Shown here one piece after another: positions 4,222 to 17,972 of a stretch of 20,900 bases of DNA. The first letter of the stretch is position 1; each line of letters starts with the position of its first letter. The position numbers and the translations under genes were made by a program. The stretch is taken from IMG/VR virus record IMGVR_UViG_3300006919_000586, positions 1-20,900 of that record; one strand, given 5' to 3'. Below the pieces are notes generated by a model, which saw nothing but the letters and a program-made list of their open reading frames with translations, was not told the DNA's origin and did not search any database. This DNA comes from a virus.

Positions 4222-4416
4222 TTAATCTTTTTTGATTAATTCGCAATTTGCTTCGTTAGCAGTTAACCCTACTTTTTTATCCCATAACCAAATGTATGAA
4301 TAGACAACTTGATTGTCTTTTTCTAAACATTTTTTACCAAAAGATAGTCTAGGTTCTTTTATGCTACAAGCCGTCAATAAGACACTTGCAAATAATATTG
4401 TTAATAATGTTTTCAT
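4222..4416 (-). CDS. Small lipoprotein, 64 residues
   Basis: The ATG at 4416 is chosen over an in-frame ATG at 4431 because TAAGGAAAAT precedes it at good spacing. The N-terminus is a lipoprotein signal: MKTLLTILFASVLLTAC with the lipobox LTAC and lipidated Cys at residue 17. The mature part is about 48 residues, basic, with two further cysteines. No family recognised. It follows the exported 111-residue gene with a small gap, so the two are likely co-expressed and envelope-located. Confidence 0.75.
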   Translation of the reverse strand: MKTLLTILFASVLLTACSIKEPRLSFGKKCLEKDNQVVYSYIWLWDKKVGLTANEANCELIKKD

Positions 4417-4423
4417 ATTTTCC

Positions 4424-4759
4424 TTACGCATTAGGTTTTAAATTTTCTAATACTTGCATTTTATTAAATGTATGATATAATATACAAGTTTCTAAGCCAT
4501 TAGGCACATCAACAGTTACCAATGTTTCACCTTTATCATTTTCATAATAAGTTACCATATAAACTGGTTCGCCATCTGGATCACTTGACTCTCTACCTAA
4601 ACTTAAATGTTTAGGAGATAACTCATTGTAATCTATGTAATTTTGAACATCCTCTGGTGCGCCACATACTGCAGGTAAATTTCTCCATACAAATGGAGTA
4701 TATTCTTCTGCAAATACGCTTGAACATAATAATGTTAAAATTAAAATTAATTTTTTCAT
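4424..4759 (-). CDS. Exported protein with Sec signal peptide, 111 residues
   Basis: Signal peptide MKKLILILTLLCSSVFA with likely cleavage after residue 17 (VFA, then EEY). The mature domain of about 94 residues has a PAVCGAPEDVQNY stretch and a later ETCILYH, so it may hold one disulfide in the periplasm. Similar small exported proteins are common in marine phages, but I know no assigned function. The start has an AAAGGGAAGT ribosome site. It probably shares the transcript of the nuclease gene from the 5584-5612 promoter. Confidence 0.75.
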   Translation of the reverse strand: MKKLILILTLLCSSVFAEEYTPFVWRNLPAVCGAPEDVQNYIDYNELSPKHLSLGRESSDPDGEPVYMVTYYENDKGETLVTVDVPNGLETCILYHTFNKMQVLENLKPNA

Positions 4760-4838: not shown

Positions 4839-5546
4839 CTATTTATTCAAGTTACTGTGTCTATCAAAGAAATCTTTAGCGTGTTTGTAGAACAACTCTT
4901 GGTGTTCTTTTATTTTATCTTCACCGTGTATCCATTCTTGTACAAAACCATCTTCACAAGCAGCCAAGATAACAGTTTGTTCTATCTTCTTACTAGGATA
5001 TAATTCTTCAAACATTTTAGCATAAGCTGAAGTTTGTAAAAAGTTACCATAGTTATAATCTGCGTCTCGTTTTTTTGTAGATGTTTTAAAATCAACTACA
5101 GATAGTTTACCTTTGTATTCAGCAATACAATCTACTTGACCTGCAACACCTAATTCTTTAGAGTACAGATATTCTTCTAAGCAATGTATATTATCTATTC
5201 TGGCAAGATATGGTTTGATAATTCTAAAAAGACCTAACGCTGTAACAGCAGTTATGCCTATGTTCTTTTCATCTTCGTTCTTTAAATGATTTTCTATAAG
5301 TGTGTGTGTAGTTTTACCTCTATTAGTAGAAGTAACAGAAATAAAGTTAGCCATTTTTTCACCAACACTATTTCTCCAAGCCAATATCTTTTGTTGTCTT
5401 TCAGGTATTGAACCTAATATGGAAGTAACTGAAGGCATATTGACACCATCAATAGTATAATATCTTATACCATCTTGGTTTTTACCTTTCACACCCAAAC
5501 TTTTGGGTAATACCGATTCTTCTAATTTCACGTGATTGTATGCCAT
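4839..5546 (-). CDS. PD-(D/E)XK (RecB/Mgme1-like) exonuclease
   Basis: 235 residues with the ordered motifs of RecB-type nucleases: MPSVTSIL (37-44), GKTTH with a likely motif-I His81, LEEYLYS (about 123-129), GVAGQVD with metal-binding Asp139, VDFKTS with Asp152 and catalytic Lys154, and QTSAYA (171-176), the family's Q...Y motif. All key residues are present, so it should cut DNA from ends with two metal ions. Roles in host DNA degradation or recombination are both possible. It heads a transcript from a consensus promoter at 5584-5612 and has an AGAAGG ribosome site. Confidence 0.88.
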   Translation of the reverse strand: MAYNHVKLEESVLPKSLGVKGKNQDGIRYYTIDGVNMPSVTSILGSIPERQQKILAWRNSVGEKMANFISVTSTNRGKTTHTLIENHLKNEDEKNIGITAVTALGLFRIIKPYLARIDNIHCLEEYLYSKELGVAGQVDCIAEYKGKLSVVDFKTSTKKRDADYNYGNFLQTSAYAKMFEELYPSKKIEQTVILAACEDGFVQEWIHGEDKIKEHQELFYKHAKDFFDRHSNLNK

Positions 5547-5583: not shown

Positions 5584-5612
5584 ATTATATCATAATATAA
5601 AGTATTTGTCAA
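5584..5612 (-). promoter_or_regulatory. Consensus sigma70-like promoter
   Basis: Minus strand: perfect -35 TTGACA (5607-5612), 17-bp spacer, perfect -10 TATAAT (5584-5589) with TGA before it (extended -10). It lies 38 bases before the nuclease ATG and just past the M15 peptidase stop. This is the strongest promoter in the window by match to consensus. Confidence 0.9.
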
Positions 5613-5616
5613 GTCT

Positions 5617-6129
5617 TTACATCAAAGAATTATTTACATCTTCTTTTGATGGACCTGTAGTTTTAGAATATTCTTTTTGATAGACAGTTCTACCATCAGC
5701 GCCTTTAAATGCTCTTAAATATTCTCGTCTATTGTCTTCATCTGTTTTGTATGAGCAATGAACCCAACCACTATTTGGTTCTTCTGGATTCCAAAACTCC
5801 AATATACATTGATCAAAATTCAAATTATCTACGATCCAATCTGCAACTTCCTTATTTGATACTCCAAATATTTCAAAGTCGGCAGCCTGGCCTGAAGCGT
5901 GCTGTGAATTAACACTTGATCCAATTGCAACACAAAGCTCTGCTGATCTATACCCACTGGATATAGATACAACTTTTGCAAAATGGTCTCTTACTGGTTG
6001 CAATATATTAGTTGCTAAACGCTCTAGGTTGTTTATATGGTCTTCGTTAGGATTATTATTAATACCCTTACGAACAGCCGTATCACTCTTAATTAACTCT
6101 TTAAGGGTGAAGTTTTTGCTTAATCGCAT
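5617..6129 (-). CDS. Peptidase M15 family, likely endolysin (cell-wall peptidase)
   Basis: 170 residues of the M15 D-Ala-D-Ala/L-Ala-D-Glu peptidase type. N-terminal FTLKELIKSD is the usual start. ISSGYRSAELC (56-66) leads to the zinc motif HASGQAADFE with His77 and Asp84, and the third ligand His124 is in WVHCSY. It should cut peptide bonds in host peptidoglycan, probably for lysis. It has no signal peptide, so it would need a holin or another route. The ATG overlaps the YdcH-like gene by 29 bases, with AAAGGAT as ribosome site. A second muralytic enzyme is at 10544-11248. Confidence 0.88.
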   Translation of the reverse strand: MRLSKNFTLKELIKSDTAVRKGINNNPNEDHINNLERLATNILQPVRDHFAKVVSISSGYRSAELCVAIGSSVNSQHASGQAADFEIFGVSNKEVADWIVDNLNFDQCILEFWNPEEPNSGWVHCSYKTDEDNRREYLRAFKGADGRTVYQKEYSKTTGPSKEDVNNSLM

Positions 6130-6275: not shown

Positions 6276-6674
6276 TTATCCCCTTGTTAGTTTTAGTAAT
6301 TTGTCCATTTGAGCCTTAATGATTGGTCCTCTATTTGGCCAATGTATGTAAGGTTCATTAGACTTTGAAAGATTGTACAAAAAAGGTAACACAATCTTTT
6401 CAATCTCTTTAAATCTATTTTGAACATCAGCGTCCTGTATCTCTTTATTAACCGTTTCACGTTCAGATACAATTTGCATAATTTCATTCATCATTGATTT
6501 GATTGAAGAAACATCTGATTTTACTTTTGATATTTCTAAATTTGTATTTTCTATTACTGAAGGATCAACAGTAGGTGTTGATGTTGTTTCAGCTGGTTTT
6601 GTAGAGACAGGAGTAAAACCATAATCTACTGTGGTATCAAATTCACGCATAAAATCTGGTATGTCATCTGCCAT
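6276..6674 (-). CDS. Conserved marine T4-like phage protein, 132 residues
   Basis: The N-terminal third is acidic and Thr/Pro-rich (likely disordered), followed by a helical coiled stretch (about residues 45-90). The C-terminal domain contains IVLPFLYNLSKSNEPYIHWP followed by NRGPIIKAQ. The 'lPlLyNL.k....YI.WPNR' signature is one I associate with a protein conserved in cyanophages and pelagiphages with no assigned function. It has an AAGGAG ribosome site before the ATG at 6674. Cytoplasmic. Confidence 0.8.
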   Translation of the reverse strand: MADDIPDFMREFDTTVDYGFTPVSTKPAETTSTPTVDPSVIENTNLEISKVKSDVSSIKSMMNEIMQIVSERETVNKEIQDADVQNRFKEIEKIVLPFLYNLSKSNEPYIHWPNRGPIIKAQMDKLLKLTRG

Positions 6675-6828
6675 TGTTTTGCTCCTTATTCTGTTTGATT
6701 ATTATTTTTGTTGGTGTTGTAACTAGGTCCGATTGTGTAATATTAATAGGACCTAAAGTCGCAATTGTGGGGCCATAACACCCACTTAAAGTAAATCCTG
6801 CTACTATAAAAGCGGGCAGGAGTTTCAA
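6664..6828 (-). CDS. Small lipoprotein, 54 residues, TTG start proposed
   Basis: Read from a TTG at 6828 the product starts MKLLPAFIVAGFTLSGC, an excellent lipoprotein signal with lipobox LSGC and lipidated Cys17, then about 37 mature residues ending in a charged tail. A longer frame from GTG at 6954 exists but lacks a ribosome site and would bury the signal. AGGGCAGG lies 14-21 bases before the TTG. The start is covered by competing inverted repeats (6796-6845), which may control translation. It could act like an Rz1-type spanin subunit, but nothing proves this. Confidence 0.55.
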   Translation of the reverse strand: MKLLPAFIVAGFTLSGCYGPTIATLGPINITQSDLVTTPTKIIIKQNKEQNNGR

Positions 6829-6845
6829 GCAGGAAAGACCTGCCC
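6796..6845 (-). promoter_or_regulatory. Competing hairpins over lipoprotein start
   Basis: Two copies each of CCTGC (6797-6801, 6839-6843) and GCAGG (6816-6820, 6829-6833) allow mutually exclusive pairings: one large hairpin GGGCAGG/CCTGCCC (6814-6845), or two separate hairpins (6796-6821 and 6829-6843). The TTG start at 6828 and its possible ribosome site lie inside. On the minus strand, GCTTTTATAG follows the large hairpin, so it could also act as a terminator. Confidence 0.5.
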
Positions 6846-6925
6846 TAAGTTTGTAGAATAAGCGGATTGACCTATTAGACTCTGGTATACGACCGTTGTT
6901 CTTCGGTTGCTCGCTTTCTACTATA

Positions 6926-7240
6926 TTATTTAGTTTTTGATTTTTGTCTAGCACGATGCTTTTTGATTACCTGTTCAGTTTTCACTTGTTTTATTGACTT
7001 TTTACCATATTGTTGTGCTAATGCACTTTGTGGATGAGCTTCTGATATTTTACTTAATACTTCTTTAAATCCTTGATCATTTTTGTAAGTAATACCTGAA
7101 ACACCAGCAACAATATTCATTCTTTTAGGTACTTGTCTGATATGTGGGTTTTTAGATAGATACTCTTCCATTTCAGCAATGGTCATTATATCATCCCATT
7201 CTTTATTTGTTTTGGTATTAATAAATGAATATGATGGCAT
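6926..7240 (-). CDS. Conserved phage protein with FmdB-like N-terminus, 104 residues
   Basis: MPSYSFINTKTNKEWDDIM at the start recalls the FmdB-like 'MP.Y.F.....G.e.e..M' pattern of T4-like cyanophage proteins, but the zinc-ribbon cysteines are missing. ISEAHPQSALAQ sits in the middle and the C-terminal tail is Lys/Arg-rich (KKHRARQKSKTK), suggesting nucleic-acid contact. The ATG overlaps the preceding stop by one base (TAATG) and no Shine-Dalgarno is seen, so translation is probably coupled. Function unknown. Confidence 0.75.
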   Translation of the reverse strand: MPSYSFINTKTNKEWDDIMTIAEMEEYLSKNPHIRQVPKRMNIVAGVSGITYKNDQGFKEVLSKISEAHPQSALAQQYGKKSIKQVKTEQVIKKHRARQKSKTK

Positions 7241-10423: not shown

Positions 10424-10544
10424 ACTGTTCTTTTTCCTTTTCTTTTTTTTTAATTTTATTATAGAAATAAAATATTGTAGTTAACCCTACTAATATAATA
10501 GTGTTGTTAATTATTAATATACTAAAGCCATCTATTAGTGTCAT
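10383..10544 (-). CDS. Small single-pass membrane protein, 53 residues
   Basis: The N-terminal half is a hydrophobic helix (FSILIINNTIILVGLTTIFY) and the C-terminal half is a run of Lys and Glu (IKKKEKEKEQYEKEKKEG) ending in PYC. Its ATG overlaps the stop of the glucosaminidase gene by one base (TAATG), so translation is coupled. Architecture matches the 50-residue protein at 12222-12374. It could be a holin-like or spanin-like lysis helper next to the wall hydrolase, but only the layout supports this. Confidence 0.7.
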   Translation of the reverse strand: MTLIDGFSILIINNTIILVGLTTIFYFYNKIKKKEKEKEQYEKEKKEGANPYC

Positions 10545-11248
10545 TATTTTTTACTTTCAACTTTAGAGTCAGTTTTTACTTCAATAGGTATTTCACCTGA
10601 TTGTTGTTCTTGTTTTCTTATTTTATCAATTATATAATTAACTCTTTCTGCATAATCAGGTGTTGTTGAATAACTTTTTAGTGTATAAATTAATTTCTTA
10701 GAATCTAATGGTTTATCCATAACTAGTAACTTAGTTCTTTCAAATCTAAACTCATCATAAGCATAATGATTGTTTAACAATTCAACTAAAAATTTTACAC
10801 CTTGACATTTTGTAGGAAATATTCTAACGCCCCAACCTTTCCAAGTAGTTCTACCTTCTAACAACATATGTGGTACTTGTTTATCATAAGTTCGTATACC
10901 AAATAGGTTATTTCCTTCTAAAGCAAAACGACTTGTACCCCAACCAGACTCTAATGCTGCCATTGCAACTATCATTTCAACAGGCACTCTTTCCATTCTA
11001 GGCGTTTCAAAGTTTACCCAATCAACACACTTACGAACAGCCTGAACAAACTGCATATCATTGTTATAATTAAATGCTGGTTCTTGTAATCCTAAATTGT
11101 TTGCCCAATCTGTAAATTTTGTTTCTACTTCTAATTTAATTTTATGAGATACATAAGGATTAGGAGTAAACGTACCAAACACATAAGCTGCTAATACAAT
11201 TAAAATAAGCCACATTATTTTTTGAAATTGGCGTTTAATTGTTTTCAT
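10544..11248 (-). CDS. Membrane-anchored glucosaminidase (Bax/FlgJ-like, GH73)
   Basis: 234 residues from an ATG at 11248 with AAAGG five bases ahead (an upstream in-frame TTG is less likely). One N-terminal membrane helix (IMWLILIVLAAYVFGTF, about 11-27) anchors the protein or serves as a signal-arrest-release signal. The catalytic domain has VEMIVAMAALESGWGTSRFA with likely catalytic Glu100, then NNLFGIRTY, the hallmark of Bax/FlgJ N-acetylglucosaminidases that cut peptidoglycan glycan chains. The C-terminus is a charged tail. A second muralytic enzyme of the M15 type is at 5617-6129, so two bond types can be attacked. Confidence 0.88.
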   Translation of the reverse strand: MKTIKRQFQKIMWLILIVLAAYVFGTFTPNPYVSHKIKLEVETKFTDWANNLGLQEPAFNYNNDMQFVQAVRKCVDWVNFETPRMERVPVEMIVAMAALESGWGTSRFALEGNNLFGIRTYDKQVPHMLLEGRTTWKGWGVRIFPTKCQGVKFLVELLNNHYAYDEFRFERTKLLVMDKPLDSKKLIYTLKSYSTTPDYAERVNYIIDKIRKQEQQSGEIPIEVKTDSKVESKK

Positions 11249-11525
11249 AAACACCTTTCTTAGCAATTGACTTTAATAACTTTAAATCTACTTTTTTATT
11301 CATTGTAATTACATAATATTTGTGAGTGACCTTGTGAGCATTTACAGGACCTATAAATGGTATGTTGTATTCTCTTTGAAATATTAATAAGTCTTTAAAG
11401 TATAAAGGTAACAAATCATTTAAAAGTTTATCATTTTCATCTTTAGGTACTTTAGGTGTTTTGTAATAACCTTTACCTTTAATTAAACCTTTTAATATTT
11501 CTTTTTGTACTTTATTAAATCGCAT
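11235..11525 (-). CDS. Hypothetical protein, 96 residues
   Basis: Basic protein starting MRFNKVQKEILKGLIKGKGY. The first helix is followed by a KDENDKLLNDLLPLYFKDLLI helix and a beta-like HKVTHKYYVITMNKKVDLK stretch, which could form a winged-helix-like fold. This is structural guesswork. It starts 11 bases inside the end of the preceding gene and its end overlaps the glucosaminidase start. No family recognised. Confidence 0.7.
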   Translation of the reverse strand: MRFNKVQKEILKGLIKGKGYYKTPKVPKDENDKLLNDLLPLYFKDLLIFQREYNIPFIGPVNAHKVTHKYYVITMNKKVDLKLLKSIAKKGVYENN

Positions 11526-14565: not shown

Positions 14566-14844
14566 TTATTTATTTAACTCACCCTTAAAGTTTACAAGAC
14601 CTTTGTTGTTATAATATTCAACTAATTGATTGTATCCGCCTACTAGTTCGTTATCTATCATAATCTGTGGCATAGTTCTAACTTTTTTACCAACGGCTTC
14701 AAATAATTCCTCTGGTGTATTAAAATCTTTTCCATATTTCTTTTCAGTAAAACTTAGGTCAAGGCCTTTTAATAAGGCCTTAGCCTTTTCACAATAGACA
14801 CAATTGTCTTTTGTATATACAGTTATATTACTGTTGTTTGTCAT
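14566..14844 (-). CDS. Glutaredoxin
   Basis: 92 residues from ATG 14844 (an in-frame TTG at 14853 is the alternative; the ribosome sites of both are poor and translation is probably coupled to the LPP20-like gene, whose end it overlaps). NITVYTKDNCVYCEKAKALL holds the CVYC redox pair at about 15-18. VRTMPQIMIDNELVGGY holds the cis-Pro motif TMP and the GG loop that bind glutathione. It reduces disulfides such as those of ribonucleotide reductase; T4-like phages often carry one. Confidence 0.92.
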   Translation of the reverse strand: MTNNSNITVYTKDNCVYCEKAKALLKGLDLSFTEKKYGKDFNTPEELFEAVGKKVRTMPQIMIDNELVGGYNQLVEYYNNKGLVNFKGELNK

Positions 14845-15445
14845 CCTTAGCAACCATTTCTACTTCATCATACTTTAAAGCAGCAAGTTTTTTAAGTTCA
14901 TATGCGTCAACTACTGTTTCAATAGAATAGTTATACATCTTATTAAACTCACCAAGTGGTAGTCTTAAACCTACCCAAGCACGATAATATCCTTGTTTGG
15001 TCATTGTAACTTCCTGTTCAAACGTTTCATAACCTCTCACAGGAGTATTTGCAATTATATTTACAAGTGTTGTCTCAACATCTGATACAACTGTCTTAGT
15101 ATTTGACTTACCTAATTCAGTAGTAAATATTTTTGCCTTTTTATTCATTTCACCTTTAATCATATCGGCCATTTCTGCCTTTGCAATTAAGGTTGCCTTT
15201 TCAATAGCAAGTTCTAAGTCTGGCGATACCGAAGTACCAACACCAAAGATACATTGTCTATCTTTATTTTTACCAAAAGTAGTCGTTTCACAAGCTTTCT
15301 TAGCATTGTAATCATTCATATACCAAGAAGGTACTTTTGTAACTACTTTGTCGGTCTCTTTTTTAATTGTGTATGATTTATTAGCACAATTTGTAAGTGT
15401 TAATCCTAACACAATCATAAGAGCATATTTTATGTATTTACTCAT
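14828..15445 (-). CDS. LPP20-like lipoprotein
   Basis: 205 residues. The signal MSKYIKYALMIVLGLTLTNC has lipobox LTNC with lipidated Cys20. PSWYMN begins the domain, then IFGVGTSVSPDLELAIEKAT, AKAEMADMIKG and a C-terminal YYRAWVGLRLPLGEF match the LPP20 pattern ('P.W......gvG.s.....A...A...Ar..l.......  ...aWv.v.lp'). The family occurs in bacterial outer membranes; a phage copy may alter host surface properties. AAAGGTG lies 10 bases ahead of the ATG. A consensus promoter is 26-54 bases upstream. Confidence 0.82.
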   Translation of the reverse strand: MSKYIKYALMIVLGLTLTNCANKSYTIKKETDKVVTKVPSWYMNDYNAKKACETTTFGKNKDRQCIFGVGTSVSPDLELAIEKATLIAKAEMADMIKGEMNKKAKIFTTELGKSNTKTVVSDVETTLVNIIANTPVRGYETFEQEVTMTKQGYYRAWVGLRLPLGEFNKMYNYSIETVVDAYELKKLAALKYDEVEMVAKDDKQQ

Positions 15446-15593
15446 TTATTTTTTTCACCTTTTCTTTCATATTATATACTAGATTTTTAGTTTTGTCAAC
15501 AAGCTGGTGCTCATTAACAGTATTAGTAAATAATTCCCAGTTAAAAGCTAGTAAAACCCAAAGAATTATTACGGTAAATGATATTTTTATCAT
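15438..15593 (-). CDS. Small single-pass membrane protein, 51 residues
   Basis: MIKISFTVIILWVLLAFNWE is one N-terminal membrane helix, followed by a charged cytoplasmic or periplasmic tail (VDKTKNLVYNMKEKVKKINE). The ATG overlaps the preceding stop by one base (TAATG). A consensus promoter (15471-15499) lies inside this gene, and the end overlaps the LPP20-like start by eight bases. No family recognised. Architecture is similar to the 50- and 53-residue membrane proteins in the operon at 12890-9306. Confidence 0.65.
   Translation of the reverse strand: MIKISFTVIILWVLLAFNWELFTNTVNEHQLVDKTKNLVYNMKEKVKKINE
15471..15499 (-). promoter_or_regulatory. Consensus sigma70-like promoter inside a small gene
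   Basis: Minus strand: perfect -35 TTGACA (15494-15499), 17-bp spacer, perfect -10 TATAAT (15471-15476). It sits within the 51-residue membrane protein gene and would drive the LPP20-like gene, the glutaredoxin and the 167-residue gene separately from the upstream envelope genes. Confidence 0.88.
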
Positions 15594-16129
15594 TAGTTTA
15601 TTACCTCCCATTTACCTGTTGGATTTAAACACACGTTACCAGGTCGTTTAAACCAACTATCTGGCCTTGCATACTTTCTACAATATACAGGTGCGTTTGG
15701 ATCTCTATAATAAAATTCAGCAAAAAGTTCCCAGTAACCTGGTTTTCTTGCCTTTTCTAATTCAATTTGTTTTTCTAGTTCTTTAATCTTTTCATTTTTG
15801 GTCATACCAAATCTAGTATCTGCACAATGCAACTCTTCCTTTTTAACTATCTCATCACCTTGTTGTTTTATATTAATAGTTACAAAACACCATTGTCCAT
15901 CTGCGGTTACAAATCTTTCTTTTTCTTTACTCCAAACTGTGTTTTCATCTTGTTTAGATACTTTTACAACATTAAACTTTTCTAAACCTGTATCTACTTC
16001 AATAATTTCATCTTTTTTAAATGCCTTTTTGTTTAAATCGTGGTTATCTGCAAAGGCATATTTACAAAACATTAAAATGAAGATTGTAGCAAACATTAAT
16101 TTTAAAATTACTCTAGGATGTATTCTCAT
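15593..16129 (-). CDS. Exported protein with surface-antigen-like C-terminus, 178 residues
   Basis: Signal peptide (MRIHPRVILKLMFATIFILM, cleavage likely after AFA at residue 27). A middle region contains DGQWCFVTINI and a charged helix (KIKELEKQIELEKARK). The end, VYCRKYARPDSWFKRPGN then VCLNPTGKWEVIN, resembles the 'CR.y.....  G.aC..pdG.W.i' end of the rickettsial 17-kDa surface antigen. It overlaps the next upstream lipoprotein gene by four bases (ATGA), and that gene shares the same C-terminal pattern. Probably periplasmic or outer-membrane located. Confidence 0.7.
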   Translation of the reverse strand: MRIHPRVILKLMFATIFILMFCKYAFADNHDLNKKAFKKDEIIEVDTGLEKFNVVKVSKQDENTVWSKEKERFVTADGQWCFVTINIKQQGDEIVKKEELHCADTRFGMTKNEKIKELEKQIELEKARKPGYWELFAEFYYRDPNAPVYCRKYARPDSWFKRPGNVCLNPTGKWEVIN

Positions 16130-16611
16130 TGAATCTCTACTCTTCCATCAGGCATTATACAAGCAACACCAAAATTAGTTCTTCTAACAGGACCACTTGA
16201 AGCAAAAGCAAAAGGCCAAGATGGTGCAATATCAATTGTACTTTCGTAGTCTCTACATTTGATAGGACCTTTGTACCAAGTTCTTGTAGTTTTAATAATA
16301 CCTGAATTTTTAGTTTTAGGATTGTACCAATTTGTTATATTAGGTTTATTAGGAGCACCAATTAAATGATCAACAAAATAATGTTTATGTGTATTATAGT
16401 CGTCATTCCAAACTTGATCTGCACCGTGAGCAGCACCTGCAGCAGCACAAACTGCAATGGCAGCAGGATCATTAACAACTGTTGAGCAAGTACCAGCAGC
16501 TGTTATTGCACCCATACTAGCGCCACTAGTAGATACTGCGTAATCTCTAGCGGCACAGTTAACAAGTAACAGACAACTAATTAATAGAATAATATTTTTC
16601 TTCAGCTTCAT
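16126..16611 (-). CDS. Lipoprotein of the 17-kDa surface antigen type, 161 residues
   Basis: ATG 16611 is chosen because the product then begins MKLKKNIILLISCLLLVNCA, a proper lipoprotein signal with Cys19; a longer frame to 16701 would bury it. A Gly/Ala-rich zipper-like stretch (SGASMGAITAAGT, later AAIAVCAAAGAAHGA) follows, as in SlyB/17-kDa antigens. The C-terminal IKCRDYESTIDI and FGVACIMPDGRVEI match the antigen's 'CREY..TV.I ... GtACr.pDG.W.i'. In bacteria these are outer-membrane lipoproteins. A host origin by transfer is likely. Confidence 0.7.
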   Translation of the reverse strand: MKLKKNIILLISCLLLVNCAARDYAVSTSGASMGAITAAGTCSTVVNDPAAIAVCAAAGAAHGADQVWNDDYNTHKHYFVDHLIGAPNKPNITNWYNPKTKNSGIIKTTRTWYKGPIKCRDYESTIDIAPSWPFAFASSGPVRRTNFGVACIMPDGRVEIQ

Positions 16612-16946: not shown

Positions 16947-16975
16947 ATCCTATCACACTTTTAACACATTGTCAA
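16947..16975 (-). promoter_or_regulatory. Sigma70-like promoter, extended -10
   Basis: Minus strand: perfect -35 TTGACA (16970-16975) in the form GCTTGACA, 17-bp spacer, -10 TAGGAT (16947-16952) with TGA before it. It lies 41 bases before the ATG at 16906 and starts the envelope operon. The region 16907-17012 holds nothing else I can support. Confidence 0.75.
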
Positions 16976-17800: not shown

Positions 17801-17972
17801 CTAGTTCTCCTAAATCACTTGTAGCACTATCACAAACTTTCATCATAGTCTTACAATTTCTTTTCATTCTGTCTAGTATAACACCACAATCTTGTAATGT
17901 CAAGTAAACATAACCTAGACCTATCAATATAATTGTTAATGTAATAATTGAAAATATTTCTGAATCTATCAT
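17748..17972 (-). CDS. Small membrane-anchored coiled protein, 74 residues
   Basis: MIDSEIFSIITLTIILIGLG begins with one membrane helix, followed by a basic Cys-containing stretch (DRMKRNCKTMMKVCDSATSD) and a charged helix (LGELDEIQKDLKRRNKKTKV). Ribosome site AAAGGAGAAGGAAT. It overlaps the upstream gene by four bases (ATGA) and the downstream gene by 53. No family recognised. Confidence 0.7.
   Translation of the reverse strand: MIDSEIFSIITLTIILIGLGYVYLTLQDCGVILDRMKRNCKTMMKVCDSATSDLGELDEIQKDLKRRNKKTKVK

What the first reader, a model, noticed from the sequence alone, without database searches (positions are those of the whole stretch)
15593..16611. Adjacent exported proteins sharing a rickettsial 17-kDa antigen-type C-terminus
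Both end in a 'C...pdG.W/VE.I' pattern after a CR.Y motif; the 161-residue one is also lipidated with a Gly/Ala zipper. In bacteria such proteins are outer-membrane lipoproteins. Two neighbouring copies in a phage suggest host-derived genes reshaping the envelope, perhaps to block other phages.
Basis: partly seen in the sequence, partly recalled or inferred. Interest (0 to 1): 0.65.

Follow-up and report, generated by a model that had tools for sequence, protein, structure and literature searches.

The report
Pelagiphage 17-kDa-antigen envelope protein cassette
This marine T4-like phage carries a strictly ordered set of small envelope proteins, one of them a much-changed copy of a bacterial outer-membrane lipoprotein, in phages related to those of SAR11 (among the ocean's commonest bacteria); it probably alters the infected cell's envelope, but its job is untested.

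Summary
ORF B (16126-16611, -) is a lipoprotein whose phage family aligns over 125 mature columns with bacterial 17-kDa antigen proteins (Pfam PF16998): hhalign score 114, against at most 23 for shuffled controls. The window copy alone misses every Pfam profile; the family shows the link. ORF A (15593-16129, -) shares only the last 36-39 residues ('YCRKY...G.VCL..GKW'). It has no lipobox or zipper, so it carries the motif but is not a full member.

Both genes belong to one cassette: B, A, a 57-aa membrane peptide, an LPP20-like lipoprotein, then glutaredoxin. The order is the same in about 90 marine viral contigs and in cultured Pelagibacter phages HTVC008M and Mosig. A consensus sigma-70 promoter is conserved inside it (at least 11 of 12 bases in 52 of 64 distinct regions). 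Phage B copies form one clade on a long branch: an old, single acquisition, not a recent host capture.

Best reading: early-expressed envelope proteins that modify the infected cell's outer membrane, most likely to exclude competing phages as T5 Llp does. Identity is solid; function is inferred (about 0.38). The curli genes of these phages lie 14-27 kb away and are separate.

The parts
16126..16611 (-). ORF B: lipoprotein with a divergent 17-kDa antigen (PF16998) domain, 161 aa; lipobox LLLVNC, small-residue helical hairpin, C-terminal beta domain
15593..16129 (-). ORF A: exported or membrane-anchored protein, 178 aa; invariant Cys pairs C81/C102 and C150/C167, YW.LFA.FYY block, 17-kDa-type C-terminal hairpin only
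15438..15611 (-). ORF C: 57-aa peptide with one hydrophobic segment; its 3' half contains the conserved promoter
15471..15499 (-). Perfect sigma-70-type promoter TTGACA-N17-TATAAT before D, conserved in relatives
14828..15445 (-). ORF D: LPP20-like lipoprotein, 205 aa
14566..14844 (-). ORF E: glutaredoxin (PF00462), last gene of the conserved order
16947..16975 (-). Promoter-like site (10 of 12) about 340 bases upstream of B; several relatives have a site of at least 11 of 12 at the corresponding place
17875..17903 (-). Promoter-like site (11 of 12) about 1.3 kb upstream of B; many relatives have a strong site at a similar distance

Best explanation
An ordered envelope-protein cassette, B-A-C-D-(glutaredoxin), of T4-like phages of SAR11 and relatives. 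Shown by sequence: B is a divergent member of the bacterial 17-kDa antigen lipoprotein lineage; A carries only its C-terminal hairpin; C is a small membrane peptide; D is an LPP20-like lipoprotein; sigma-70-type promoters lie before D and upstream of B. Inferred: the proteins are made early and exported by the host machinery, with B and D lipid-anchored at the outer membrane and A and C tethered at or near the inner membrane. Inferred and, I think, most likely: they bind host envelope components from the periplasmic side and change the cell surface so that competing phages can no longer adsorb or inject, as T5 Llp does to FhuA. The C-terminal beta domain of B, not the zipper, would be the working part, since the HTVC008M-like clade has lost the zipper. 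The identity part is near 0.95; the number given is for the function.
For: Constant gene order and strand in about 90 viral contigs and two cultured phages. B homology to PF16998 lipoproteins. Conserved sigma-70-type promoters, 104 sense against 15 antisense over 58 loci, and no excess of T4-type late promoter words, point to early expression. Purifying selection on every gene. Precedent: T5 Llp is a small periplasmic phage lipoprotein with a disulphide, expressed early, that blocks the receptor from inside (PMC9586334); B has an invariant Cys pair C119/C151.
Against: No experiment. No sequence or significant fold match to any known exclusion protein. No receptor partner known. Four proteins is more than known lipoprotein exclusion needs. 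In Melnitz the D gene is followed by a cell wall hydrolase, which fits wall work or lysis as well. Early timing is read from promoters only.
Confidence: 0.38

Rival explanations
1. Envelope support: B and D brace the outer membrane of the infected cell, as SlyB does under stress, so that a small cell survives long enough to make large virions.
For: The bacterial PF16998 proteins gathered here match the SlyB glycine zipper (7ojf, 1.8e-5); B has a helical hairpin in the model; SlyB rings stabilise the outer membrane and its proteins (PMC13067283).
Against: The zipper in phage B is degenerate (only 1 of 52 members touches PF05433, at E 0.42) and wholly lost in the HTVC008M-like clade, which keeps the rest of the cassette. 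The phage profile itself does not find SlyB.
Confidence: 0.24
2. Lysis or wall remodelling: an exported or anchored A with small membrane peptide C and lipoproteins B and D bridge or disrupt the envelope at the end of infection (spanin-like work).
For: C is a small membrane peptide and A has a predicted helix-rich middle; a glucosaminidase lies about 3.5 kb downstream, and in Melnitz a cell wall hydrolase follows D directly.
Against: Sigma-70-type rather than late promoters; only a meaningless spanin profile match for A (E 0.099); strongest conservation is in the cysteine-bridged domains, not in coiled coils.
Confidence: 0.17
3. Part of the phage's reported curli-type (CsgGF) secretion system, as accessory or substrate proteins.
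For: Some of the same phages carry csgG, and the reported operon includes hypothetical proteins (PMC7029224).
Against: csgG lies roughly 14-27 kb from the cassette in the four records that hold both, and it was not found in Mosig, which has the cassette.
Confidence: 0.05

Closest known systems
17 kDa outer membrane surface antigen family (Pfam PF16998, 17kDa_Anti_2)
   Same: B: lipobox, helical hairpin region, W.NP.(S/T)GN.G block, CR.Y...G.AC..pDG.W end, co-linear over 144 columns
   Different: Phage B is on a long branch, the glycine zipper is degraded and has an added Cys pair, and one clade lacks the hairpin; A has only the last 36-39 residues
HTVC008M AGE60507.1, 'putative outer membrane protein, surface antigen protein', and Mosig QOI69132.1
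   Same: Direct homologs of B in the same gene order
   Different: HTVC008M copy is 116 aa without the hairpin; only annotated, never described as part of a cassette in what I could read
LPP20 lipoprotein family (PF02169)
   Same: D: 20 of 41 homologs match, best 1.5e-4
   Different: The window copy is at E 0.092, below the cut-off; function of LPP20 proteins is itself unclear
T5 Llp superinfection exclusion lipoprotein
   Same: Small phage lipoprotein with an invariant Cys pair, apparently early (PMC9586334)
   Different: No sequence relation shown or tested; Llp acts alone and is much smaller
TraT surface exclusion lipoprotein
   Same: Two TraT entries are ranks 1 and 6 of the PDB fold search with B (E 0.088 and 0.39)
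   Different: Not significant, superposes badly (rmsd 20 A and over), and the profile comparison is empty (0.8%)
Phage curli pore genes csgG/csgF of pelagimyophages and Melnitz
   Same: Same phage group, envelope-directed genes taken from bacteria (PMC7029224, PMC9004378)
   Different: Different locus, 14-27 kb away

Membership tests
17kDa_Anti_2 (PF16998), for B | Match to the curated profile | tested here: inconclusive
   Window copy: no hit. Family: 45 of 52 members hit at E up to 1, best 1.1e-6, and L105 exceeds the cut-off, 28.9 against 26.6 bits
17kDa_Anti_2 (PF16998), for B | Co-linear profile similarity to bacterial members beyond the leader | tested here: met
   Score 113.9 over 125 columns, shuffles at most 23.0, reversed 13.8
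17kDa_Anti_2 (PF16998), for B | Lipobox and C-terminal CR.(Y/F)...AC...(D)G.W motif | tested here: met
   C19 nearly invariant, C119, C151, P154-D155-G156 invariant; final W is V in the window copy
17kDa_Anti_2 (PF16998), for B | Location in the outer membrane | not testable with these tools
   Needs fractionation
Glycine zipper 2TM (PF05433, SlyB/Rickettsia 17 kDa) | Match to the zipper profile | tested here: not met
   1 of 52 members at E 0.42; zipper region absent in the HTVC008M-like clade
17kDa_Anti_2 (PF16998), for A | Full-length co-linear match with lipobox and zipper | tested here: not met
   Only 36-39 C-terminal columns match (41.7 against at most 18.6), no lipobox in the window copy; 13 of 55 members weakly hit, best 0.014
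LPP20 (PF02169), for D | Match over the curated cut-off | tested here: inconclusive
   20 of 41 members, best 1.5e-4; window copy 13.6 bits against 25.9
TraT (PF05818) | Profile similarity to TraT proteins | tested here: not met
   hhalign 0.8% for B, TraT alignment small (2 sequences)
Phage superinfection-exclusion lipoproteins (Llp/Cor) | Blocks adsorption or injection of related phages when expressed | not testable with these tools
   Needs a bench test
Pelagimyophage curli operon | Adjacent to csgG/csgF | tested here: not met
   csgG 14-27 kb away, none found in the window or in Mosig

The most novel reading that the evidence does not exclude
A phage envelope apparatus not described before: a domesticated bacterial 17-kDa antigen lipoprotein, a second protein that carries its C-terminal hairpin, a small membrane peptide and an LPP20-like lipoprotein act together across the periplasm as a multi-part exclusion or surface-remodelling machine in phages of SAR11 and possibly of other marine bacteria.
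Probability: 0.3. Interest if true: 0.72.

Novelty: new variant of a known kind. Interest (0 to 1): 0.5.

Why it matters
SAR11 is among the most abundant bacteria in the sea and its large myophages are mostly unannotated. This cassette is constant in order across diverged phages, and at least 567 viral stretches encode a relative of B, so it is likely important to infection. It gives a defined, testable unit for how these phages treat the envelope of a minimal host, and suggests that a bacterial outer-membrane lipoprotein lineage was taken over by phages once, long ago.

Tried and rejected
Single-sequence Pfam, PHROGs and NCBIfam scans of A and B: nothing useful. A and B as duplicate copies: rejected, 16-19 columns only. 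hhalign percentages taken at face value: rejected, because two unrelated lipoprotein leaders alone give 94% and E 1e-7 (B against D); I therefore removed leaders and used shuffles. TraT membership: rejected. Curli operon membership: rejected by distance. Freshwater 'phage' hit MW462191: its neighbours look bacterial, so not counted. T4-type late promoters near the cassette: fewer in the window than expected by chance. Fold search with A: nothing. C as a non-gene (only a promoter read as an ORF): considered; it keeps a hydrophobic segment and a start in Mosig and HTVC008M too, so I keep it as a probable gene.

Full report
What the window is. The record is a 20.9-kb fragment of an uncultured virus. 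It carries a T4-type gp32 (PF08804, 2e-43), an exonuclease, an SprT-like protein and a glutaredoxin. The nearest cultured relatives for the genes studied are Pelagibacter phages Mosig EXVC030M and HTVC008M, both listed under Kyanoviridae with host Pelagibacter ubique HTCC1062. The host of this window is inferred from that kinship, not shown.

The two ORFs. A (15593-16129) and B (16126-16611) are on the minus strand and overlap by four bases. Relatives of B and A were found in 23 and 80 viral loci at first; a profile-guided scan gave at least 567 viral stretches encoding a relative of B. Both are under purifying selection, strongest in the C-terminal part (pN/pS 0.21 for B, 0.19 for A).

B is a 17-kDa antigen lipoprotein. 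The window copy alone hits no profile, but 45 of 52 homologs hit PF16998 at E up to 1, best 1.1e-6, and the copy in L105 passes the curated cut-off. I gathered bacterial PF16998 proteins from genomes of one class, apparently alphaproteobacteria, and compared profiles: 99.6%, E 1.1e-24, 144 columns, from the leader to the last residue. Pairwise hhalign values can mislead, because two lipoprotein leaders alone reached 94%. With leaders removed, the score is 113.9 against at most 23.0 in 100 column shuffles; for the C-terminal domain alone it is 93.8 against 18.8.

A is not a second copy. Only its last 36-39 columns match the bacterial family (41.7 against at most 18.6) and only 16-17 match B (30.2 against at most 18.6). 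The window copy has no lipobox or zipper; the A family has its own invariant cysteine pair C81/C102 and an invariant YW.LFA.FYY block. Whether the shared end is descent of a small domain or convergence on a cysteine-bridged hairpin is open.

Origin. In a maximum-likelihood tree all 22 phage B representatives form one clade (100/99) on a branch of 1.33 changes per column, within the ordinary bacterial sequences and apart from the paralogs of an AT-rich small-genome family. This suggests one old acquisition.

The cassette. In nearly every locus that reaches far enough the order is B, A, C (small membrane peptide, not always recognisable by profile), D (LPP20-like lipoprotein), E (glutaredoxin), all on one strand; Mosig and HTVC008M agree, with a small ORF in the place of C and one or two extra small ORFs between B and A. 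L045 carries B-A-C-D twice in tandem. A contig in a gammaproteobacterial single-cell genome (L108) has the full order as well, so the host range of the cassette may exceed SAR11, unless that contig is contamination. In OM43 phage Melnitz, D (1.4e-25) is preceded by a small membrane peptide and a cysteine-rich exported protein and followed by a cell wall hydrolase; B itself was not found there. B varies in form: the HTVC008M-like clade has lost the whole hairpin, so the C-terminal domain must carry the common function.

Regulation. A perfect TTGACA-N17-TATAAT lies inside C, 25 bases before D. At least 11 of 12 bases, always with 17 spacer bases, are kept in 52 of 64 distinct upstream regions, though not in the HTVC008M-like clade. 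Sites of at least 11 of 12 are found 104 times in sense and 15 times antisense over 58 loci, concentrated before D and at two distances upstream of B. Synonymous change is lowered over the promoter inside C (0.40 against 0.52-0.55 in the rest of C). T4-type late promoter words are rarer than chance in the window. I infer early, host-polymerase expression; it is not measured.

Structure. AlphaFold gives B a helical hairpin and a beta domain (pLDDT 76) and A a poorer model (67). Against viral models, B finds a 116-aa entry, the length of HTVC008M's copy (M1I816, E 6.7e-9, 44% identity). Against the PDB nothing is significant; TraT ranks 1 and 6 at E 0.088 and 0.39, but a profile comparison with TraT is empty.

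Mechanism. Steps shown: gene order, family membership of B, motif in A, lipoboxes, promoter sequences, selection. Steps inferred: export, outer-membrane anchoring, early timing, interaction of the four proteins, and the purpose. I commit to envelope modification that excludes competing phages (0.38), on the pattern of T5 Llp, which is periplasmic, lipidated, made early and acts on the receptor from inside (PMC9586334). Envelope support like SlyB (0.24; PMC13067283) and lysis or wall remodelling (0.17) are the main rivals; the remaining weight is on functions I cannot name.

Known or new. The two papers on these phages that I searched discuss curli genes and do not use the word lipoprotein (PMC7029224; PMC9004378), and csgG lies 14-27 kb away from the cassette. 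I found no description of the cassette as a unit, in a library that lacks most subscription journals.

Noticed in passing
window 15471-15499 (-): Consensus sigma-70 promoter embedded in the coding sequence of C; the conserved residues VDK and VYN of C coincide with the -35 and -10 boxes, so the peptide's conservation is partly that of the promoter.
   Followed up: yes
window 5584-5612 (-): Second perfect TTGACA-N17-TATAAT, upstream of the exonuclease ORF 4839-5546; strong sites in the window mostly point in the gene direction.
   Followed up: partly
L045 4486-8733: B-A-C-D block present twice in tandem, the second B very divergent.
   Followed up: partly
L108 2706-4547: Complete B-A-C-D-glutaredoxin order on a contig filed under a gammaproteobacterial single-cell genome, suggesting a related phage in a non-SAR11 host or contamination.
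   Followed up: partly
L275 2979-5040 (Melnitz, OM43 phage): D homolog in a parallel module: small lipoprotein-like ORF, Cys-rich exported protein ending in a C...C.W-type tail, small membrane peptide, D, then a cell wall hydrolase.
   Followed up: partly
window 5617-6129 and 10544-11266 (-): Two cell-wall enzymes: peptidase M15 (3e-17) and glucosaminidase (1.7e-16), the latter called endolysin-like by PHROGs.
   Followed up: no
window 4222-4759 and 6664-6954 (-): Further small exported or lipoprotein-like ORFs outside the cassette; the window is rich in envelope-directed proteins.
   Followed up: no
L147-L176: An AT-rich (about 27% G+C), 0.9-2.0 Mb bacterial family often carries two divergent PF16998 lipoprotein paralogs, in several genomes about 22 kb apart.
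   Followed up: no
MW462191.1 (L276): A record labelled bacteriophage that reads as bacterial chromosome (cytochrome c maturation genes, PhoP).
   Followed up: partly
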